A stretch of 64,000 nucleotides of DNA, taken from Methylobacterium nodulans ORS 2060 (lineage in GTDB: Bacteria > Pseudomonadota > Alphaproteobacteria > Rhizobiales > Beijerinckiaceae). Numbering within the stretch: the first letter of the stretch is position 1; the number at the start of each line of letters is the position of its first letter. Made by a program: the position numbers and the translations under genes. Under the pieces are notes generated by a model. The model saw only the letters and a program-made list of their open reading frames with translations, searched no databases and had not been told where the DNA came from. The stretch covers positions 3,313,501-3,377,500 of the forward strand of contig NC_011894.1 of NCBI RefSeq assembly GCF_000022085.1. Reading direction: 5' to 3'. Shown here one piece after another: positions 29,180 to 39,986 of the stretch.

Positions 29180-29893
29180 GTGGCGAAGCGTGACCGACAT
29201 ATCGTTGTTGTGGAAGACGATCCGGTGACTCGCATGAAGCTCGCGCACTACTTCAGCAGCGAGGGTTACCGGGTGACCCAGGCGAGAGACGGCGCCGAGA
29301 TGCGGCGGATTCTGGAGCGCGCTCCTGCCACCGTCCTTATGATCGACGTGAACCTGCCAGGCGAGGATGGCCTCAGACTGGCGAGAGAGCAACGTGAAAG
29401 TTCGGACGTCGGCATCATCCTCGTGACATCACGCACCGACGCGATCGACCGGATCGTCGGCTTGGAAGTTGGCGCCGACGATTACGTGACCAAACCATTT
29501 GAACCACGCGAACTCCTGGCACGGGTCAAAAACCTTATCTCGCGGATGGAGCGTACGCGAAGCGCCACAGATGAACCAAAATACGTCGAATTCGCAGGCT
29601 GGCGCCTCGATCTTCGAGCGAGGTTGTTATGCGATAGCCAAGGTCATCCGACAAACCTTACGAATGCCGAATTCAAATTGCTCGCATTGCTTGCGCGCCA
29701 TCCAGGACAGGTACTCAGCCGTGATCGGATTCTCCGCGAAATCGCCCATCGCGAATGGGACGCGGCCGATCGCACTGCGGATGTGCTCGTTCGCCGACTG
29801 CGGCGCAAGCTGAGGGATGACGGCCGGAAGCCACAGATCATTCTGACCTCGCACAACGAAGGCTATTATCTGTCCGGCGCCGCCGTGGCCTGA
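29180..29893 (+). CDS. torR: TorR-like response regulator (OmpR family)
   Basis: 237 residues. The receiver domain has the acidic pair VVVEDD, phospho-acceptor Asp in MIDVNLPGEDG, and IILVTSRTDAIDRIVGLEVG, DDYVTKPFEPRELLARVKNL, which match E. coli TorR very closely. The C-terminal OmpR-type winged helix has LTNAEFKLLALLARHPGQVL, DVLVRRLRRKLRDD and the wing SHNEGYYL. The GTG at 29180 is taken as start, with GGGAG 9 bases upstream. It converges with the kinase gene, overlapping its 3' end by 28 bp. Its likely targets are the tor-box-like repeats at 34028-34080. Confidence 0.88.
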   Translation: MAKRDRHIVVVEDDPVTRMKLAHYFSSEGYRVTQARDGAEMRRILERAPATVLMIDVNLPGEDGLRLAREQRESSDVGIILVTSRTDAIDRIVGLEVGADDYVTKPFEPRELLARVKNLISRMERTRSATDEPKYVEFAGWRLDLRARLLCDSQGHPTNLTNAEFKLLALLARHPGQVLSRDRILREIAHREWDAADRTADVLVRRLRRKLRDDGRKPQIILTSHNEGYYLSGAAVA

Positions 29894-32808
29894 GTTCGCG
29901 GGGCTGACTGCGCAGCCTGGACCTGGCTCTCAATCGCCTTCAGCCCTGCGTCCCAGGCAAGCCGACACTCTGCGACGAGTCTCGACAACTCCCCATCCCC
30001 TGGACCCGCACCGCTCCTTTCAACGCGCTGGGCGGATTCTAGCAAGCGGCTCATGTTGAGCGATCCTGCTGTGCTTTGGATGGCATGAGCGAGGCGTCGG
30101 AGATTGTCGCCATCGCCTTCAGCCAATGCCCGATCAAGCGCATCGAGACGTGCCGGCATCGTGTTGCGCGCCGCTTCAATGAGGGAGGCCATCACGGCCG
30201 GCCCGAGAGCCGCCAGGTCCGCGGCGAATGCCTCGTGATGATGTGCTAGGCTTGAGCTATTGAGCGCCGATGCCATGGCGCCCGACAGCGCGATCGGCGA
30301 AAGTGGCTTGGCCACGAAAGCATTCATTCCCAAAGACACGAAGCGTTCGACATCGTCGGGGAACACATGCGCGGACATGCAGACGGCGGGGAGGTGTGGA
30401 TCACCGAGACGTTCCCGCAGGCGAGCGACGACCTCCGGTCCGTCGAAATCCGGAAGGCTGACGTCAGTCACGATGATATCAGGCCGAAACTGTTCAAGCG
30501 CTTCCACGGCGCTCGCGCCGTCGCAAGCGGCGATGACCTCGTGTCCGAGCCGTTCCAGATAGGTCGAAGCGACGATGCGCGTCGCCTCGTCATCCTCGAT
30601 CAGTAAAACCTGACGGCTTTGGACCGGCTCAATTCCGCGTTCCCGACGCGCGGCATCATAGTGGTAACGCTCTGCCCGTTCGAGTCGTAGCGTCAGAGAG
30701 AAGGTCGAGCCTCTGCCAGGCTCGGATACAGCCGACACCTCGCCGCCCATGAGAGCGGCGAGCCGGCGTGATATCGCGAGGCCGAGGCCGGTCCCGCCGT
30801 AGCGGCGGGTGATGGAATTATCGGCCTGAGCAAATGGCTCAAAGATACGTTCGAGTTGGTCAGATGGGACTCCAACGCCCATGTCGTTCACGTCGAAGCG
30901 CACGGACTGAAAATCCTGATCCTCATCCAAAGCTACGACTTCGACTCGCACTACGCCGCGTTCACTGAACTTGATAGCGTTGCTGACGAGATTGACTATG
31001 ATCTGCTGTATCTTTCCATCGTCAGCGCGGTGAAGCGGCCACAAATCGGGGTCGACTTCGAGTTCGAGGCAAAGCCCTTTGGCTTCCGCGACCGGCTGCA
31101 TCAGTGCGCCGACGCCCTCCACGAGCGTCCTCACGTCGACTGGCTCGATGTCGAGAGCAATTTCGCTCGTCTCTGCCCTTCCATAGGAAAGAATGGAATC
31201 AAGCACGCGAAGCAGCGCGGCGCTGCTGCGTCTCGCGCCGTCGAGCCACCGGGCTTGCTCCGGCTTGAGCTCGGCAGAGCTGAGCAGATCCATCATGCCG
31301 ATCATCCCAGTCAACGGCGTCCGGATCTCGTGGCTCATCACGGCGAGGAACTCCGTCTTGGCGCGGCTCGCGGCCTCGGCCCGAGTCCGGGCGGCAGCAT
31401 GTTCCACAGCTTCGATCCGCAGGAGTTCGTTCGCAGCCTCGAGCATTGCGGTCTGCTCGCGCACGAGTTGCTGGAGGTCTCGTCTATGCCGTAGGAGCTC
31501 CAGGTTAGTTTCGGCCTGCTCTACTTCCAACATCCGGCGACGTTTGGACTCGTCCCGAAATACGACGACCGCCCGCCCTAGCTGCTGCAGCTCGGGCGCC
31601 CCCCTGATATCAACATCAACGTCGACGTCGCCGTCCGACAGCCTCTCAAGCGCGAGGGTCACCTCCTCCAGCGGTCTCACCAAACGCCGCTCGACCAGCA
31701 ACCACACGACGAAGCCTGACGCTCCCACCGCCGCTACGGTCGACATGATCAGAATGATGAAACCCCAAGTGACGGCGCTCTCGCCACGAGATGCGGCAGC
31801 CGCGGAGGATGCTTGGGCCGCCTTCAGGAGATCCGCCGCGATCGTCCTCGTCGCATCGGCCGACCGCTCAGCGGTACGCGCCAAGTTATCGGATTGAGCA
31901 CCGATGGCGACGATCCGCGAGCGCGCTCCGGCGAGGCCGCCGTCCGGCGCATTGTCGCTGATCGCGTTGCGCAGCGCCTCCAGGTAACTTTTGGCCTGCT
32001 GGCGCCGGGTGGGATCCGCGATCCCGGTTACCCGCCTGGTGATCGTTTCGATATATGCAAGGTACTCAGTCCTGATGTCGGAGACTTCGATGGCCTTGGA
32101 CGCATAGCGAAACTTATTGACAACGACTCCTATCTGTGAGGCCGCAAGGCGCAACTCGGACATTTGCTGAAGATTGTAGATATTCCTCTCGACAATTTGA
32201 TCTAACATCTCTAATTTTGCTTCGTCTTCCAGCTTCGGGTCCTTTGGTTTGTAGAGATCCGCGATGAGCGCCAGGCTGAGAGCATGTGCATTCGATACGA
32301 AGGTCTCGGAAAGCTCCGTTAGATTCCTAGCGGCGTCCATTGTCTGCCCGACGACATTCTCGAAGCGCGCAGCAAGCGGGAGGCGCTCAGCAACGAGTGC
32401 TTCCTGCCGCTCAAGATCTGAGAGCAGGCTTTCAATCTCGTACTTCAGCCGGCTCGTATGGCTCGAGCCGGTGACCGGCTCGCCCTCTCTGGTGAGGAGC
32501 CTTCTGATCTGGTCGCGAAGGCGGGCAAAGTCGGTCTTCTGCCGCTCAAACTCCACGGGATCGTTGACACGTCGCAGGGCCGGCCCCATTGCAACAAGCT
32601 GGTCGCTTGATTCAACCATCGACTGTGCTGTGACCACGGCCGGAAGCGCGCGAGCACTCAACAGCGTCTGGGTTTCCGCGACATCGCGGAGTATCAACCA
32701 GGCGAACAAACCGGGCGTCAATGACAGCGAAGCTATGATGAGGAAGGCAACGAACAGCCGCCGACCGATGCCTGACTGCGAAAACATGATGGCGTTCAAC
32801 CGTTCCAT
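29866..32808 (-). CDS. torS: TorS-like hybrid sensor kinase (HK-REC-HPt)
   Basis: About 980 residues. Transmembrane helix near 17-40 (RRLFVAFLIIASLSLTPGLF), a long helical periplasmic sensor region (about 40-340), second helix (TWGFIILIMSTVAAVGASGF), HAMP, a coiled coil, HisKA with MSHEIRTPLTGMIGMM, HATPase with IVNLVSNAIKFSERG and GGTGLGLAISRRLAA, receiver with VLLIEDDEATR and IIVTDVSLPDFDG, and a final HPt domain with AHAIQSTAGSLNM. This is the TorS order. It would autophosphorylate on a signal relayed by TorT. The start may be the ATG at 32808 or a TTG at 32823. It lies back to back with torT. Confidence 0.9.
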   Translation of the reverse strand: MERLNAIMFSQSGIGRRLFVAFLIIASLSLTPGLFAWLILRDVAETQTLLSARALPAVVTAQSMVESSDQLVAMGPALRRVNDPVEFERQKTDFARLRDQIRRLLTREGEPVTGSSHTSRLKYEIESLLSDLERQEALVAERLPLAARFENVVGQTMDAARNLTELSETFVSNAHALSLALIADLYKPKDPKLEDEAKLEMLDQIVERNIYNLQQMSELRLAASQIGVVVNKFRYASKAIEVSDIRTEYLAYIETITRRVTGIADPTRRQQAKSYLEALRNAISDNAPDGGLAGARSRIVAIGAQSDNLARTAERSADATRTIAADLLKAAQASSAAAASRGESAVTWGFIILIMSTVAAVGASGFVVWLLVERRLVRPLEEVTLALERLSDGDVDVDVDIRGAPELQQLGRAVVVFRDESKRRRMLEVEQAETNLELLRHRRDLQQLVREQTAMLEAANELLRIEAVEHAAARTRAEAASRAKTEFLAVMSHEIRTPLTGMIGMMDLLSSAELKPEQARWLDGARRSSAALLRVLDSILSYGRAETSEIALDIEPVDVRTLVEGVGALMQPVAEAKGLCLELEVDPDLWPLHRADDGKIQQIIVNLVSNAIKFSERGVVRVEVVALDEDQDFQSVRFDVNDMGVGVPSDQLERIFEPFAQADNSITRRYGGTGLGLAISRRLAALMGGEVSAVSEPGRGSTFSLTLRLERAERYHYDAARRERGIEPVQSRQVLLIEDDEATRIVASTYLERLGHEVIAACDGASAVEALEQFRPDIIVTDVSLPDFDGPEVVARLRERLGDPHLPAVCMSAHVFPDDVERFVSLGMNAFVAKPLSPIALSGAMASALNSSSLAHHHEAFAADLAALGPAVMASLIEAARNTMPARLDALDRALAEGDGDNLRRLAHAIQSTAGSLNMSRLLESAQRVERSGAGPGDGELSRLVAECRLAWDAGLKAIESQVQAAQSAPRTQATAAPDR

Positions 32809-32809
32809 T

Positions 32810-33949
32810 GTGGATCGACGCAAGCCCTCGCCCGTGGGTCGACGTTGGAAATATCGCCGCTCGAACCTGGAGCAAACTTTGGCCTGTGCGATCAGCCGTC
32901 TTCTCCCGCCGATTGCCTTGGCGTTGGTGGCAGTGGTCGGGCTGCGCGCCAGCGTTCACGGTGCGGAACGCGAGGTGCTGGCGTGGCCACCACCCTACGA
33001 TTATTCTGGCACGCCTGCGACGATCTCTTTCAAGCCAATCGCGAAGGCGGAACGGCAGTGGCGGATATGCGCATCCTATCCGCATCTCAAGGATGCGTAT
33101 TGGATCAGCGTCAACTATGGCATGGTCGCCCAAGCGACCGCTGCCGGCGTTCGACTCACTGTCGTTGACGCTGGCGGCTATCCCAACGTGAAGAGACAGA
33201 GAGAGCAGATCGAAACTTGCAGCCACAATGCAGATGCGCTCATTGTCGGAGCGGTCTCCTACGATGGACTCAGCGAGGTTGTACGGGCGATAGCGGCGCG
33301 TATTCCCGTGATCGCCGCCGTCAACGATATGGAAGATGCTGGCCTTGCCGCAAAGGTCGGAATCTCCTGGACTGAGATGGGACGCATCGTGGGTGCCTAC
33401 TTAGCAAGCCGTCATCCGACGGGAGGCGCCGCTGCGAAAGTCGCGTGGTTTCCCGGCCCATCCGCCGCAGGCTGGGTCAAATTCATCGATGCTGGGTTCC
33501 GGGCCGGACTCGCTGGAAGCGCCGCGACAATTTCGATTGTCAAATGGGGAGATACCGGCTTTGACATCCAATCACGTCTCGTCGAAGAGACACTCGAGAG
33601 CGGACCTCCAGTTGACTACATCGTCGGAAGCGCCGTGACAGCTGATGCCGCCGTAAGCGTGTTGAGAGAGCGAAGACCGGATACCTCGATAAAGATCTTC
33701 GCTGATTATTTTACCCACGGCACCTACCGTGCGATCAAACGGGGGCGCTTAATAGCAGCCCCGACGGACTCGCCGGTGCTTCAGGGACGACTGGCGATCG
33801 ACCAAGCCATCCGCGCGTTGGAGCAGAAACTCGAGCACCGCCACGTCGGCCCATCAATTCTATTGGTCTATAAAAGCAACGTTGATCGGCTTGACTTGGA
33901 CGACAGCCTTGCTCCCGGATGGTTCGAGCCCCGCTTCGAAGTTCCTTGA
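32810..33949 (+). CDS. torT: TorT-like periplasmic binding protein
   Basis: About 379 residues from a GTG at 32810, divergent from the kinase. An N-terminal hydrophobic export segment (LLPPIALALVAVVGLRASVH) is followed by WRICASYPHLKDAYWISVNY, GMVAQATAAGVRLTVVDAGG and YPNVKRQREQIETC, the hallmark region of TorT. The rest is a type I periplasmic-binding fold (VIAAVNDMEDAGLAAKVGIS, PVDYIVGSAVTADAAVSVL). In E. coli TorT binds TMAO and docks on TorS; the ligand here is open since no TMAO reductase is present. The precise start is uncertain: the N-terminal 20 residues before the hydrophobic stretch are basic. Confidence 0.85.
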   Translation: MDRRKPSPVGRRWKYRRSNLEQTLACAISRLLPPIALALVAVVGLRASVHGAEREVLAWPPPYDYSGTPATISFKPIAKAERQWRICASYPHLKDAYWISVNYGMVAQATAAGVRLTVVDAGGYPNVKRQREQIETCSHNADALIVGAVSYDGLSEVVRAIAARIPVIAAVNDMEDAGLAAKVGISWTEMGRIVGAYLASRHPTGGAAAKVAWFPGPSAAGWVKFIDAGFRAGLAGSAATISIVKWGDTGFDIQSRLVEETLESGPPVDYIVGSAVTADAAVSVLRERRPDTSIKIFADYFTHGTYRAIKRGRLIAAPTDSPVLQGRLAIDQAIRALEQKLEHRHVGPSILLVYKSNVDRLDLDDSLAPGWFEPRFEVP

Positions 33950-34027
33950 TCTCTCGGACCGCGCGATGCCGATGCGCTCGCGCCACTCTCGGCCGGTGCC
34001 GATCCAGCGCTCGGCGAGAGTTAAAAT

Positions 34028-34080
34028 CCGTTCACAAATGGAAGCATCCGTTTAACAAATTCGATCATTCGTGTTCACAT
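34028..34080 (+). promoter_or_regulatory. Three tor-box-like repeats upstream of the cupin gene
   Basis: CCGTTCACAA (34028-34037), CCGTTTAACA (34048-34057) and GTGTTCACAT (34071-34080). The E. coli TorR decamer is CTGTTCATAT; these match at 7, 5 and 8 of 10 positions. The first two are spaced 20 bases, two helical turns. They lie 90-140 bp before the cupin start, where an activator would bind. Confidence 0.45.
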
Positions 34081-34168
34081 CGACTGGGTAAATAGTCGGT
34101 GTCAATGTTGGCATCAACCTCATAACAATAGGCTGATGGCACAAAAATAACGACGAAGGGATGGAACA

Positions 34169-34606
34169 ATGCACAAGATTCAATCATTGGGGATTCTTGC
34201 TGGGGTCGCAGCGCTCGTTTTGGGCGCCGGTTTCACCGCCCAGGGACACGGCGTCGAAACATCGGCGGAAATGACCTACGTTAAAGCCGCATCCAGTAAA
34301 AAAATTAAATCCATGAATGAACCTGGAGTGAAGGCTTTCTTTGAAGATATCGTTTCCTCAAAGGATCCGAAGTCGCCGATCACCTGTGCCATGTTCCGGC
34401 TTGAGAAATCAGAACCGCTAAAGTACACCTACGACTACGACGACACAAAGATTATTTTGGATGGCGAAATTACGGTGAGCGACGGCAAGTCCACCTTCAC
34501 CGCGCACAAAGGAGACGCACTTCTGCTCCCGAAAGGTGCAAATATTACCTTTACGACCGCATCTTCCGGCTTGGCTTGGGCTTGTGGCCAACGCCCCGCA
34601 TCCTGA
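34169..34606 (+). CDS. Exported single-domain cupin
   Basis: 145 residues with a signal peptide (IQSLGILAGVAALVLGAGFT, cleavage near AQG). The cupin core is TYDYDDTKIILDGEITVSDG then THKGDALLLPKGANITFTT-like strands and a terminal WACGQRPAS, resembling EutQ-type cupins. The classical His metal ligands are largely replaced (YDYDDTK in motif 1), so ligand binding without a metal, or an unusual site, is possible. GAAGGGATGG precedes the ATG. Codon use is less GC-rich than in flanking genes, with many AAA/AAT codons. Confidence 0.75.
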   Translation: MHKIQSLGILAGVAALVLGAGFTAQGHGVETSAEMTYVKAASSKKIKSMNEPGVKAFFEDIVSSKDPKSPITCAMFRLEKSEPLKYTYDYDDTKIILDGEITVSDGKSTFTAHKGDALLLPKGANITFTTASSGLAWACGQRPAS

Positions 34607-34647
34607 CAACCGGCTTCAACCCGGTCTCGAGGTTGTAGAGGTGCCCC

Positions 34648-36183
34648 ATGAAATTCCCGTCAATTTGTAGCCTGCCATTACTTGGCTTGGCCATGATCGA
34701 ACCTTCGGTTGTCCTGGCTGATCCGGTAGCCAATCTGCGCGATCTCACGGGGGGAGATCCATTCTTCTATACGAGCGACCAGTACGTTAGAGAAGGGGAG
34801 GGACAGAAAGCTCTCGTGGGTGTCGGGCGTCCATCGACGACACATTCACGAATTCCCCATCTACCATTTTACATGGGCTACATGAACACGAACTATACCT
34901 ATCGGTTCGTGAGCGTAGCAGAGCAAGTCCTTATCATGATCGGTGAAGGCAAGCACGGGCTGTGGCGGACCCAGGAGAACGGTTTCGTCCGGGAGTACAG
35001 AAAAAAAGGTGCGGCCGGTTTGGAAAAGGATGCCAACCTTGAGGATCCCAAGAATTTTGATGTGATTAAAAAGGATTATGCGTCGTATTTGCCTGACGAA
35101 AGCTACGCCGGTTACAAGTATCCAGACGAGCAGCTCAGCGCGGATGGTCGTCTCAATTTTATAGACCTACCAATTAGCCACGCAAAATACGAAGCTAAAT
35201 ACGCAGACCACGAGCCTATCGACCTTGCGAACTATTATTGCACGATGTCTGAGGCCGATTACCCTTATGCATTTCAGGCAGTGAACTTTGCCTTCTCGCA
35301 ACCTGGAGCTAACGTCGTTGGACCACTGGGTCGGCGCGCCGGCCTAGATATCAAAGAAAATTACACGAGAGTGCTTCGCCTGAAGCAGTTCCCGGACGCA
35401 CGCACGTGGGTCAATGGGGTCAATGTCGGCCAACCCGGCCGAGACAGCCTCCATGTTGACTGGAAAGCTGTCGACTATGATCGAACCGATGCCGAGTTCT
35501 ACTTGGTAGAGAGGCCGTTTTTTAATAAGCCGTATCTGTTCGTTGTGGCCGTATACGAGCCGAAGAGCGGTAATGGGTTCGCGTATCTCCGGCCCAATGG
35601 AGCCTACTTTCGATCCCTCGGAGACCGTGCAAAGGGCGTGCGCACAACTGCCCCCGCAGCTCCAACATTTCCGCTGAAAGACGGCGGTACGGGTCAGGCT
35701 GTCGGGCTACCAATCTATGGCGTTCATCATCCGGACCGTGCTGCCTATAGCAGTGGCGGTGCCTGTCCGCTGAAAGGCGGCGACTGGGGCAGATACCCCG
35801 ACCCGCGGGCTGGCTCGGGCTGGCCGACCCAGTACGAGGAGGTCACCCCGCTCTGTGATGCAGTGCTCATAGACATTAAGTTCTACAGCAACTTGGACGG
35901 GCGTGATTGGAGCGATCCGGACAAGTACCTCGCCAATGCAGGTGCCGGCACTAGGACGGTCGAATACAAGATGCAGCCAGGGACTTACGGAATCTTTACC
36001 GACCCGTACAATGTGGCAGCTGGCCGATCCAATCCGGAGCAGCAGGAAGTACCCGACCGGCTCAGCTTAAACTACCGCACGGTTCAGAAGCCGGTTTCTT
36101 ATGTCGAAACCGCAAAGCCCACGAGCAACACTGCGACGGCGCCAGTACCTAGCACCTCCTGTAGGCAGGCTTTGGCAAAATAA
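34648..36183 (+). CDS. Large exported protein of unknown family
   Basis: 511 residues with a signal peptide (MKFPSICSLPLLGLAMIEPS, cleavage near LAD). GAGGTG lies 5 bases before the ATG, and the gene begins 41 bp after the cupin gene. The mature protein is rich in Tyr, Asp, Gly and Pro (FYTSDQYVREGEGQ, HLPFYMGYMNTNYTYRFVS, EPIDLANYYCTMSEADYPYA, GGDWGRYPDPRAGSGWP) and has a Ser/Thr/Pro tail with a final Cys. I recognise no family. Four Cys could make disulfides. It is followed by a strong terminator, so the cupin and this gene form one unit. Base composition is lower in GC than the surroundings. Confidence 0.7.
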   Translation: MKFPSICSLPLLGLAMIEPSVVLADPVANLRDLTGGDPFFYTSDQYVREGEGQKALVGVGRPSTTHSRIPHLPFYMGYMNTNYTYRFVSVAEQVLIMIGEGKHGLWRTQENGFVREYRKKGAAGLEKDANLEDPKNFDVIKKDYASYLPDESYAGYKYPDEQLSADGRLNFIDLPISHAKYEAKYADHEPIDLANYYCTMSEADYPYAFQAVNFAFSQPGANVVGPLGRRAGLDIKENYTRVLRLKQFPDARTWVNGVNVGQPGRDSLHVDWKAVDYDRTDAEFYLVERPFFNKPYLFVVAVYEPKSGNGFAYLRPNGAYFRSLGDRAKGVRTTAPAAPTFPLKDGGTGQAVGLPIYGVHHPDRAAYSSGGACPLKGGDWGRYPDPRAGSGWPTQYEEVTPLCDAVLIDIKFYSNLDGRDWSDPDKYLANAGAGTRTVEYKMQPGTYGIFTDPYNVAAGRSNPEQQEVPDRLSLNYRTVQKPVSYVETAKPTSNTATAPVPSTSCRQALAK

Positions 36184-36187
36184 TACC

Positions 36188-36219
36188 AACGGCCCGAGAT
36201 GCTGCCGCTTCGGGCCGTT
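36188..36219 (+). terminator. Strong terminator of the cupin/orphan operon
   Basis: AACGGCCCGA and TCGGGCCGTT form a perfect 10-bp stem with a 12-base loop, 5 bp after the stop codon and followed by GATTTAT. Confidence 0.8.
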
Positions 36220-36483
36220 GATTTATCTCGACTTCTCGATGCCAGGTCACAGCTTGGCGAAATCTGGGAATGGAACCAAGGGTCATTGCTGATGTCCGTT
36301 GGTATAAGATGAGAATGATCCGGCCTGCGTCGCCTACGTCTACGCACCCGGTCGCGCCGTCGAGATCCCGATCTCGCACGCGCTTGGGAGGGCCGCTTTT
36401 CTATGTTCTCACGAGTGATGAGGTGGGCCGTGCTGACGTCTGCAAGGAGATTATCTTACCCTCGCCGCGGCTTCCGAGCAGCG

Positions 36484-37535: not shown

Positions 37536-39345
37536 GTGGGCACGGACAGCGGCAGTGCGCGCTACAGCGTCAGCGCCGGGACCCACTATGAGCTGCAGGC
37601 ATATTATGCGGCTCTGAAGTGCGCCGGACTGGTCATCGTCAACTGGTTCAACAGCGCCGGATCGGCGATCAGCACCGCTTACGGTACGCTGGTCGACGGG
37701 CGCGGCGGGTCCTACGCCTACAGCAGGAGCATGCTGCTCGTGACCGCTCCGGCCGGAGCGGCCTACGCGGAGGTCATCTGCGCCGCCACCACCGCGGCCG
37801 GGGCGGCGGGTGCCTGCTTCTACCTCTCGCGGGTGATGTTCGCGGTGGCCGTCGCGGGCCAGACGGAGGTGTCGCCCTACGTCGACCCTGGCATCACGGC
37901 GATCTCGGGCGGCGGGATCATCACCCGGTCGATAGGTGCGGACCGGCTCGTTGCGCGCTCGATCACGGCCGGCGAAATCGCCGCTGGCACCATCACCGCC
38001 ACCGAGATAGCGGGCGGGACCATTACCGGGGACAAGATCGCCGGTAACACCATCACGGGCGGCAACATCAAGGCGGGCACCCTGACCGCGCGTGAACTCG
38101 CGGCCTGCTCCATCACCACGCCGAAGCTCGCGGTCTCCAGCTACAACTTCGCCTACAATACGGAGCTGGTGCAGAGCACCCGGGGCTGGAACATCTCCGG
38201 CACGAGCTGGGGTGCGAACATGCCCGCGATCTGGCAGGAAACCCTTTGGGTGCCGGCCGGCGCGACGGGCATCCGGCTCACCTGCGACGTCGCGGCGGCG
38301 GCCGTCCCGGCAGGCGGCTACTTCGAGCTGTTCCACGGCCGCGCCAACGCCAACGGCGTCTGGGCCTTCTACCCCCCGCGTGGGCGGGTCCTTCTATGAG
38401 TTCAGCGTCTACGCGACGGGGCACCGCTGCGCGCCCCAGATGTATGTCCAGTTCCTCGACGCGGCCGGCAATCATGTCGCCTATGCCGGTGGCGTGGTCG
38501 GTGCCAACAACCAGGGCATCCAGGGCGGCGCCCTGAAGGACTACCCCCGCCTCGGGTTCATCGCCCAGGCTCCGAGCACCGCGACCCAGTTCCGGGTCAT
38601 GTATCGGGGCGTCAACATCACGGGTGACGGCCCGATCGTGATGCTCGCCGGCATGATGTATGCGGGCGCCCGCTCCGATCAGACGGAGTGTTCGCCCTAC
38701 ACCCCGCCCGGTGTCACGCTGATCGACGGCGGCACCATCATGACGCACACGATCGCGGCGGACCGGCTCGTCGCAAGATCGATCACTGCCGGGCAGATCG
38801 CGGTCGGCGCGATCACGGCAACCGAAATCGCCGGCTCGACCATCACGGGTGGGAACATCGCGGCGCGGACGATCACCGCGGCCAACATTGTCGGCCGATC
38901 CATCACGGCCTGGGAGATCGCGACAAACACCATCACCGCCAACCAGATTGCCGGCCAGACCATCACCGGCTGGAATATCGCCAGCAATACCATCTCAGCG
39001 GACAAGCTCGTCGCGAATTCGATCACCGCCGGGCAGATCGCGGCCGGCGCCATCGGCGTTGACCAGCTCGCCGCGGGCGCGATCACGGCCGACAAGATCG
39101 GGGTGGGGCTCAACTCGACCAACCTGCTCTACAACTCGGACTTCCGGGCGGGAGTGGCCGGCCACAACGGGATGACCGGCCCGTGGCCTCCCGGCATCTA
39201 TGGGACGTGGTCGAACTACGACCTCACCGGCCATGGCCACGCCCCCTACATCGGCCTCAACCAGTCGGGCGCGGCATGGCAGCCGAACGGGATGGGCTCG
39301 TTGCAGGTGAGCTGCACCGGCACCCCCCTGCGGTACGTCTTCGGT
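37536..39345 (+). pseudogene. Phage tail-fibre/host-specificity protein with a frameshift
   Basis: Two frames join near 38380 (extra base in a C-run) into one protein of about 600 residues. It alternates carbohydrate-module-like blocks (ARYSVSAGTHYELQAYYAAL; GGSFYEFSVYATGHRCAPQM) with two arrays of short repeats built on xITAxxIAxx, e.g. ADRLVARSITAGEIAAGTIT and TITGWNIASNTISADKLVAN, as in the C-terminal part of phage lambda J-like and tail-fibre proteins where they form trimeric beta structure. There is no real start: the GTG at 37536 is internal, so the N-terminal part is missing. The similarity also ends abruptly near 39345. Confidence 0.7.
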
Positions 39346-39438
39346 GGCGGCGCAGCGGCGTGCACCTGCCCGAGCGTCTCCAGCCATGCGGCCAGTCCGG
39401 TTGGGATCGGCACCTCGCCGGAGGATGGAGGCGACAGC

Positions 39439-39546
39439 TCAGTCTCGCGAGAGCAGGCGGCCGACGAGCGCGACCACCGCAACGACCGCCAGGACGACGC
39501 CGGCCGCGAGGATCATCGCACCCGCACCCTCCAGCATCTCCAACAT
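39439..39546 (-). CDS. Very small membrane protein
   Basis: 35 residues from the ATG at 39546, with GGAG 8 bases upstream: MLEMLEGAGAMILAAGVVLA then VVAVVALVGRLLSRD, a single transmembrane helix with a basic end. Near the tail-fibre gene it could be a phage membrane protein; no family is recognised. Confidence 0.4.
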   Translation of the reverse strand: MLEMLEGAGAMILAAGVVLAVVAVVALVGRLLSRD

Positions 39547-39653
39547 GGCGCGCACTCCAGCCCGAAGGGCCTGCTGGAGCAGCGCGGCTCGCTGAGACCG
39601 GTTCCCGGACACGCCGCGCAGGCCTCCGCATTCTCGCGCACAGGCCCGTTCGC

Positions 39654-39986
39654 TTAGATCGTCTCGTATGCGAACAGAACCGCAATCAGCGAGAGACTGA
39701 CTAGGCCGAGTACGAAGCACAGGTCTGCGACGCGTTCCAATCGAGCGCTCAACCCGATGCCTGTGGTCCTGCGCATCGACAGGTACGAGGCTAGCGCGCT
39801 GGCCAGAAACAGCAGCGCCGCGAGGCCCGCGTACTCGTCGACGTGGCTGGGACCGATCCGCTCCTCCAAGATTTTCACCAAGCCGATCACAGTGGCGCAG
39901 ATGCCAACCATTGTGCCAGACGCGGGCAGGATGTGGTGCGAGAGCCCACGCCCCTGCTCACGCTCGTCAGGCGGCTCATCAGGCAT
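39654..39986 (-). CDS. Small membrane protein, three helices
   Basis: 110 residues from the ATG at 39986. After a charged start (MPDEPPDEREQGRGLSHHIL), three hydrophobic segments: ASGTMVGICATVIGLVKILE, YAGLAALLFLASALASYLSM and FVLGLVSLSLIAVLFAYETI. The HHILPASGTMVG segment is of a type I have seen in small conserved bacterial membrane proteins. The function is unknown and the ribosome site weak. Confidence 0.6.
   Translation of the reverse strand: MPDEPPDEREQGRGLSHHILPASGTMVGICATVIGLVKILEERIGPSHVDEYAGLAALLFLASALASYLSMRRTTGIGLSARLERVADLCFVLGLVSLSLIAVLFAYETI

What the first reader, a model, noticed from the sequence alone, without database searches (positions are those of the whole stretch)
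29180..36183. TorRST-like phosphorelay rewired to an exported cupin and an orphan exported protein
TorR, TorS and TorT homologues are all intact, but no TMAO reductase (torCAD) is present. Instead, 79-141 bp downstream of torT lie three tor-box-like repeats, then an operon of an exported cupin and a 511-residue exported protein with no family I recognise, ended by a strong terminator. The linked genes are less GC-rich than their surroundings, pointing to import as a unit. TorT and the exported products would all act in the periplasm, so the system may sense, bind and process a small extracellular compound other than TMAO.
Basis: partly seen in the sequence, partly recalled or inferred. Interest (0 to 1): 0.75.

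Follow-up and report, generated by a model that had tools for sequence, protein, structure and literature searches.

The report
TMAO-type sensor controls exported cupin operon
A bacterium appears to use the sensor that gut bacteria use to detect trimethylamine N-oxide to switch on two secreted proteins, one from an unnamed protein family without a clear structural relative, instead of the usual respiratory enzyme.

Summary
TorR, TorS and TorT are intact, no torCAD was found, and an exported cupin plus a 511-residue protein ("P511") follow. The "tor-box-like repeats" form a TorR-type operator: four boxes spaced 10-21-22, as in the E. coli torC promoter and in four TmoX-type TMAO-transporter promoters beside TorRST on alphaproteobacterial plasmids. 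A loose pattern of it, fitted to include this site, hits nowhere else in the 8.8-Mb genome without mismatch. The five best-scoring TorT homologues each share a contig length with a cupin or P511 homologue, so the linkage is probably conserved. P511 is no orphan: at least 292 homologues, the cupin upstream in 19 of 24 other loci, a TorF-type porin downstream in 10; but no Pfam, NCBIfam or PDB relative. Best reading: a TMAO-type signal induces a periplasmic module through TorR. P511's action is inferred only; Tdm, the PF11927 DMA-monooxygenase family and TmoX were not found in this genome.

The parts
29180..29893 (+). torR, OmpR-type response regulator (start codon uncertain: GTG 29180 or 29135)
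   Evidence: NF008034 281.8 bits over cut-off 275; 48.5% identical to E. coli TorR
29866..32823 (-). torS, hybrid sensor kinase with TorS sensor domain, receiver and Hpt; 3' end overlaps torR by 28 nt; start uncertain
   Evidence: PF21689, HAMP, HisKA, HATPase_c, Response_reg, Hpt; TIGR02956 627.9 bits, below its 676.5 cut-off, as is the TorS beside a TmoX-type transporter in L095 (628.5)
32786..33949 (+). torT, periplasmic ligand-binding partner of TorS (start uncertain; 387 aa in database entry P0121)
   Evidence: NF008185 372.2 bits over cut-off 200; TIGR02955 298.9 below 310; residues as in TorRST-linked TorTs; clade with its five best-scoring homologues and P0136, 100/99
34018..34085 (+). 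TorR-type operator: four boxes, at 34020, 34030, 34051 (read TTTAACA) and 34073, spacing 10-21-22
   Evidence: same spacing as E. coli torC; matrix from five other promoters scores 24.7 here, next best 7.3 in 64 kb x 2 strands; one 0-mismatch hit of a pattern fitted to include it in the genome
34169..34606 (+). exported cupin, EutQ-like, without invariant His; three invariant Tyr (86, 88, 90) and two invariant Cys (73, 139)
   Evidence: PF06249 35 bits over cut-off 21; alignment of 25 sequences
34648..36183 (+). P511, exported 511-aa protein of an unnamed family
   Evidence: at least 292 homologues; no Pfam/NCBIfam/PDB sequence match (only scattered E > 0.02); AF2 pLDDT 82.9, no clear fold match found
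36187..36220 (+). stem-loop after P511, putative terminator with weak U run
   Evidence: -25.8 kcal/mol, z -5.63; not listed by the terminator scan

Best explanation
A TMAO-type signal in the periplasm is bound by TorT, which switches TorS; the His-Asp-His-Asp relay phosphorylates TorR; TorR-P binds the four-box operator at 34018-34085 and activates the cupin-P511 operon, its only recognisable target of this type in the genome. Both products are exported. P511 is probably an enzyme or binding protein acting on the inducing compound (TMAO or a near analogue) in the periplasm, with the cupin as an accessory small-molecule binder. Shown by sequence: the components, the operator, the conserved cupin-P511 pair. 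Inferred from families: ligand class and relay direction. Inferred only: what P511 does. Rough step confidences: TorR control 0.85, TMAO-type inducer 0.7, P511 acting on that compound 0.35.
For: Operator: spacing 10-21-22 is the same in E. coli torC, four TmoX-type promoters and the window, although single boxes deviate (for example two in L095); an Azospirillum torA-type promoter was aligned to it by hand and its first two boxes are weak. A matrix made without the window puts the window site first in 64 kb on both strands (24.7, next 7.3) and finds the E. coli torC site as the best of its 10.5 kb; 19 cupin promoters of loci without TorRST score at most 5.9 against 23.0 here. One 0-mismatch pattern hit in 8.84 Mb, reversed-pattern control 0. 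PMC9239176 (passages; on Salmonella) gives boxes 1, 2, 4 as CTGTTCATAT and box 3 as CCGTTCATCC, as found in the E. coli stretch. Ligand class: the window TorT has the Y and W of the TorRST-linked plasmid TorTs and of TorT 3o1h; of 12 opened plasmid records (of 59 with a TorT match) all 4 with torR+ torS- torT+ order adjoin an ABC transporter whose binding protein matches PDB 4xz6 at E 7e-156 or better, which PMC8918994 (passages) calls TmoX of Ruegeria pomeroyi with TMAO. Linkage: 5 of 5 best-scoring non-self TorTs share a contig length with a cupin or P511 homologue, against 1 of 113 lower-ranked. P511 module: cupin upstream in 19 of 24 other loci; TorF-type porin downstream in 10 of 24; in actinobacterial-labelled L018-L020 a GcvT-type neighbour, in L018 and L019 nearest to the C-terminal part of TMAO demethylase.
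Against: P511 genomes as a group do not look like TMAO users: Tdm over cut-off in 2 of 24, DMA-monooxygenase family PF11927 in 7 of 24, a TmoX-like protein at E < 1e-60 in 1 of 24 (6 of 24 at E <= 1e-10), and none of these in the window's genome. TorT is over cut-off in 3 of the other 23, and those three have transporter-type residues. P511 is sporadic even in a methylotroph genus (5 of 24 Methylophaga-genus genomes). Elsewhere the operon lies beside XRE-PAS-type (12 loci) or GAF-HTH-type (7 loci) regulators (domains checked in one of each). In Ruegeria pomeroyi the TMA/TMAO genes are reported to be controlled by TmaR and TmoR (PMC13390433, abstract and one passage), not TorR. Shared contig lengths are indirect; those contigs could not be read, and P0136 in the same clade shows no match. 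One unrelated place (L012) scored 24.4 with the matrix. GcvT is a broad family, and 'TorF' is a family label that does not prove TMAO transport.
Confidence: 0.62

Rival explanations
1. Same circuit, but the inducer is not TMAO: another small oxide or methylated compound (DMSO, another amine oxide) is bound by TorT and handled by P511.
For: The genome shows no torA over cut-off, no Tdm, no PF11927 and no TmoX. TorT-like proteins do diverge: six plasmid copies sit in a 5-oxoprolinase/biotin-carboxylase/sugar-ABC operon without TorS at the locus.
Against: The five of those six that were aligned lack the Y and W that the window TorT and its clade keep. The nearest plasmid TorRST sets adjoin TmoX-type transporters.
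Confidence: 0.27
2. TorRST is a captured switch; the cupin-P511 module serves a general periplasmic task (for example metal, cofactor or formaldehyde handling) and is not specific to the TorT ligand.
For: Different regulator types adjoin the same operon in other hosts, few of which have TorT or TMAO genes. 10 of 23 genome loci come from methylotroph taxa. P511 has invariant Cys and His residues.
Against: The linkage to a TorT clade appears kept in relatives with 64-76% identical TorT, and no second operator of this type was found. TorF-type porin neighbours.
Confidence: 0.3
3. Chance adjacency: TorRST and the cupin operon are unrelated neighbours in a low-GC island.
For: None of the 24 other P511 loci held lies beside TorT.
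Against: Operator geometry and its rarity; shared contig lengths in 5 of 5 best-scoring TorTs.
Confidence: 0.03

Closest known systems
TorRST-torCAD of Escherichia coli K-12
   Same: TorR, TorS and TorT homologues; four-box operator with spacing 10-21-22 upstream of the target operon
   Different: No torC, torA or torD at the locus; torR and torS are convergent here; the target is an exported cupin and P511
TorRST beside a TmoX-type ABC transporter (Leisingera, Gemmobacter, Paracoccus yeei, P. aminophilus plasmids)
   Same: Gene order torR+ torS- torT+, no reductase next to the set, same operator spacing
   Different: There the target is an importer divergent from torR; in the window the target lies downstream of torT
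TMAO demethylation pathway (TmoXWV, Tdm, Dmm)
   Same: Non-respiratory TMAO use, the role that a TmoX-linked TorRST suggests (inference)
   Different: Tdm, PF11927 and TmoX not found in this genome
EutQ / Cupin_3 family
   Same: Cupin matches PF06249 and PF05899
   Different: Exported; EutQ equivalog score 36.9 against cut-off 193; no ethanolamine genes seen beside it
TorF family putative porin (TIGR02001)
   Same: Downstream of P511 in 10 of 24 other loci
   Different: None seen by eye among the window ORFs to 48 kb; not searched genome-wide

Membership tests
TorRST sensor system | TorR equivalog score | tested here: met
   NF008034 281.8, cut-off 275
TorRST sensor system | TorS sensor domain plus HisKA, receiver and Hpt | tested here: met
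   motifs
TorRST sensor system | TorS equivalog cut-off | tested here: inconclusive
   TIGR02956 627.9 against 676.5; the TmoX-linked TorS of L095 also misses it at 628.5
TorRST sensor system | TorT equivalog score | tested here: inconclusive
   NF008185 372.2 over 200; TIGR02955 298.9 under 310
TorRST sensor system | Residues of TorRST-linked TorTs (Y in YPHxKD, W in xSW/xPW/xDW) | tested here: met
   same in PDB 3o1h. A His in THG is also kept here but not in L096. That these residues contact TMAO is recalled, not tested
TorRST sensor system | TMAO binding and signalling | not testable with these tools
   needs biochemistry
TorR operator | Four boxes spaced 10-21-22 upstream of the target | tested here: met
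   box 3 fits when read one base on
TMAO respiration (torCAD) | TorA-type reductase in the genome | tested here: not met
   BisC-like protein 617.9 and 584.7 bits against TorA cut-offs 909 and 1465; 896.1 against 1017.55 for the bisC family
TMAO respiration (torCAD) | TorC cytochrome in the genome | not tested
   none seen by eye at the locus; no genome-wide search
TMAO demethylation pathway | Tdm, TmoX, DMA monooxygenase (PF11927) | tested here: not met
   none in G000; other DMA enzymes not tested
EutQ | EutQ equivalog score | tested here: not met
   36.9 against 193
Metal-dependent cupin | HxH...E...H ligands | tested here: not met
   no invariant His in 25 aligned sequences; invariant Tyr instead. 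The motif is recalled
Any solved fold for P511 | Foldseek/VIA match to a PDB chain | tested here: inconclusive

The most novel reading that the evidence does not exclude
P511 founds a new family of periplasmic enzymes that convert TMAO or a close analogue outside the cytoplasm, with its cupin partner as carrier, so that TorRST has been moved from respiration to extracytoplasmic use of methylated amine oxides.
Probability: 0.22. Interest if true: 0.85.

Novelty: new variant of a known kind. Interest (0 to 1): 0.62.

Why it matters
It shows one operator geometry (10-21-22) shared by E. coli torCAD, alphaproteobacterial TMAO-transporter promoters and a new output, which makes TorR targets findable by sequence. 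It also ties an unnamed exported protein family without a clear structural relative to a chemically narrow signal, so that its function can be tested directly.

Tried and rejected

Consensus tor-box counting was not enough: CTGTTCATAT with up to 3 mismatches occurs at 108 + and 86 - sites in the window, and no cluster of three was found at 34020-34085 by that measure. The spacing comparison settled it. Box 1 was recognised only after comparison with the other promoters. The pattern was loosened to fit the window, so its zero mismatch there is by construction; its rarity elsewhere is the result.

Considered and dropped: a PQQ/alcohol-dehydrogenase link (L017 neighbours are YncE- and RbbA-like); a TorR relative beside P511 in Paracoccus (the L025 regulator scores higher as OmpR and is below both cut-offs); vertical spread (only the window's own genome matches in 385 class and 397 order genomes). 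Expression of P511 in Methylophaga thiooxydans was not seen (PMC6548844, passages only; supplements not available).

Literature: searches. None of the rows listed was about TorRST controlling a cupin/P511 operon or tmoXWV; several listings were cut (for example 15 of 272 and 15 of 123), and the library lacks most subscription journals, so this is weak.

The name Methylobacterium nodulans ORS 2060 is recalled from the genome size and comes from no call.

Full report
What is there. The window lies on the 7.77-Mb contig C7 of an 8.84-Mb, 8-contig genome. torR (29180-29893 +), torS (29866-32823 -) and torT (to 33949 +) are intact by family scores and domains, with the three phosphorelay motifs in TorS. 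Downstream are an exported EutQ-like cupin (34169-34606) and the 511-residue P511 (34648-36183). GC3 is 0.64-0.70 for torRST, 0.58 and 0.60 for cupin and P511, and 0.76-0.88 for three upstream genes. P511 is in 1 of 99 searched genomes (the window's own and 98 relatives), and so in 0 of 58 others of the same genus. A TorT match exists in one other same-genus genome, but at 38% identity and without the Y and W residues discussed below. Import is plausible.

No respiratory set found. Across the genome the strongest TMAO/DMSO-reductase-type match is a BisC-like protein on contig C1 (896.1 bits against 1017.55) with no evident signal peptide. TorC was not searched genome-wide.

The operator. By consensus mismatch they are unremarkable. 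I compared the gap with the promoters next to TorRST on four plasmids with an ABC transporter (L094-L097) and one with a molybdopterin reductase (L100). On the coding strand of the target, the four transporter promoters carry boxes spaced 10, 21 and 22 bases, with single boxes that deviate; the L100 stretch was aligned to this spacing by its third box, and its first two boxes are weak. The window has boxes at 34020, 34030, 34051 (read as TTTAACA) and 34073: the same spacing. The E. coli K-12 torR-torC gap shows 10, 21, 22 as well, and its boxes are those named for Salmonella in PMC9239176 (passages). A matrix from the five plasmid sites, without the window, gives the window site 24.7 bits; the next best of 64 kb on both strands is 7.3. 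In the other loci held at that time (1.76 million strand-bases in all, nine loci left out), one place in L012 reached 24.4, so the score alone is not unique. The same matrix finds the E. coli torC site as the best of its 10.5 kb, exactly in place (17.3). With E. coli added to the matrix, 19 cupin promoters of loci without TorRST score at most 5.9, against 23.0 in the window. A loose pattern of the array, fitted so as to include the window, occurs once with 0 mismatches in the whole genome, at this site; one other place has 3, and the reversed-pattern control has none.

Ligand class. The substrate-binding proteins beside TorRST in L094-L097 match PDB 4xz6 at E 2.5e-171, 6.9e-156, 4.7e-158 and 9.3e-158, far above the next chain. 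PMC8918994 (passages) states that 4XZ6 is TmoX of Ruegeria pomeroyi, with TMAO in the pocket. Of 59 plasmid records with a TorT match I opened 12: 4 are TorRST beside TmoX, 1 is TorRST beside a molybdopterin reductase, 1 is torS-torT in Vibrio, and 6 are TorT-like proteins in carboxylase/sugar-ABC operons without TorS at the locus. In the alignment, the five TorRST-linked TorTs have Y (YPHxKD) and W (SW/PW/DW); the five transporter-type ones aligned have F or L and F. PDB 3o1h, a TorT, has Y and W. The window TorT is of the first kind. The three Grimontia/Enterovibrio proteins over the TorT cut-off look like the second kind. That these residues contact TMAO is recalled.

Conserved linkage. In the protein database, the five best-scoring non-self TorT homologues (64-76% identity, P0122-P0126) each have a longest-contig length equal to that of a cupin homologue (8931, 12229, 5353, 2922) or a P511 homologue (4182, 5353); of the 113 lower-ranked TorTs entered, one matches (11937; lists). 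These five and the window's TorT lie in a clade with 100/99 support that also contains P0136, for which no match was seen, so the label needs two changes on the tree. The contigs could not be fetched, so this is inference, though a strong one.

P511. At least 292 homologues (120 listed) and 23 loci in genome contigs plus one plasmid. Of the 23 loci, 10 are from methylotroph taxa (Methylotenera, Methylobacillus, Methylophilus, Methylophaga, Methylophilaceae), the others from Paracoccus/Paracoccaceae, Microvirga, Enterovibrio, Grimontia, a betaproteobacterial MAG and four actinobacterial-labelled MAGs. The cupin lies upstream in 19 of these 24 loci; it is missing in L018-L021 and in the partial L023. 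A TorF-type porin follows in 10 of 24 (9 by clustering; L024 by family; all 10 over cut-off); L019 and L022 hold almost no sequence downstream of P511. Neighbouring regulators cluster as an XRE-PAS type in 12 and a GAF-HTH type in 7 loci (domains checked in L008 and L006). In L018, L019 and L020 a GcvT-type gene adjoins P511; for L018 its best family is TMAO demethylase (C-terminal domain, 299.9 bits, far below the full-length cut-off), and L019 gives 275.7 bits. P511 has invariant residues in 93 aligned sequences including C198, C373, C403, H71, H103, H178, H360 and H361. The AF2 model is fairly confident (mean pLDDT 82.9), yet no PDB chain matches well.

The cupin. In 25 aligned sequences there is no invariant His; Y86, Y88 and Y90 are invariant, near where metal-binding cupins carry their His pair (recalled), as are C73 and C139. 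An aromatic pocket would suit a methylated amine, but this is speculation.

Against the TMAO reading. Among the 24 P511 genomes searched (G000 and 23 loci), Tdm is over cut-off in 2, PF11927 in 7, and a TmoX-like protein at E < 1e-60 in 1 (6 at E <= 1e-10); the window's genome has none. P511 is in 5 of 24 genomes of the Methylophaga genus. Thus P511 is an accessory trait and not visibly part of the known TMAO pathway. In Ruegeria pomeroyi the pathway is reported to be under TmaR and TmoR (PMC13390433, abstract and one passage). E. coli is reported to form DMA and formaldehyde from TMAO by an unidentified activity (PMC4949985, passages); this shows only that such activities can be uncharacterised.

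Verdict. The regulatory claim is well supported by sequence: TorRST with a TorR-type operator drives an exported two-protein module. The inducer is most likely TMAO or a near analogue. The function of P511 is open and testable.

Noticed in passing
L101-L105, L109 (plasmid loci): Proteins annotated 'TorT' sit in 5-oxoprolinase/biotin-carboxylase/sugar-ABC operons without TorS or TorR at the locus and lack the Y and W of TorRST-linked TorTs (checked for L101-L105): probably misannotated transporter proteins.
   Followed up: partly
L035 (contig C1 of the window's genome): A BisC-type molybdopterin reductase without evident signal peptide lies beside a gene that looks like an aminotransferase/C-S lyase (by eye).
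   Followed up: no
window 37536-39657: High-GC ORFs with repeated ITADKI/TIT-type motifs, like phage tail-fibre proteins (by eye), lie just downstream of the low-GC genes.
   Followed up: no
L018:4710-7553: Near P511 in an actinobacterial MAG are an M24/creatinase-like gene and two genes that look like electron-transfer flavoprotein subunits (by eye), besides the GcvT-type gene: a possible methylated-amine cluster.
   Followed up: no
L025:14751-21548: In Paracoccus sp. TOH the P511 locus adjoins an OmpR-type response regulator and kinases, a formamidase and an AmiS/UreI family transporter.
   Followed up: partly
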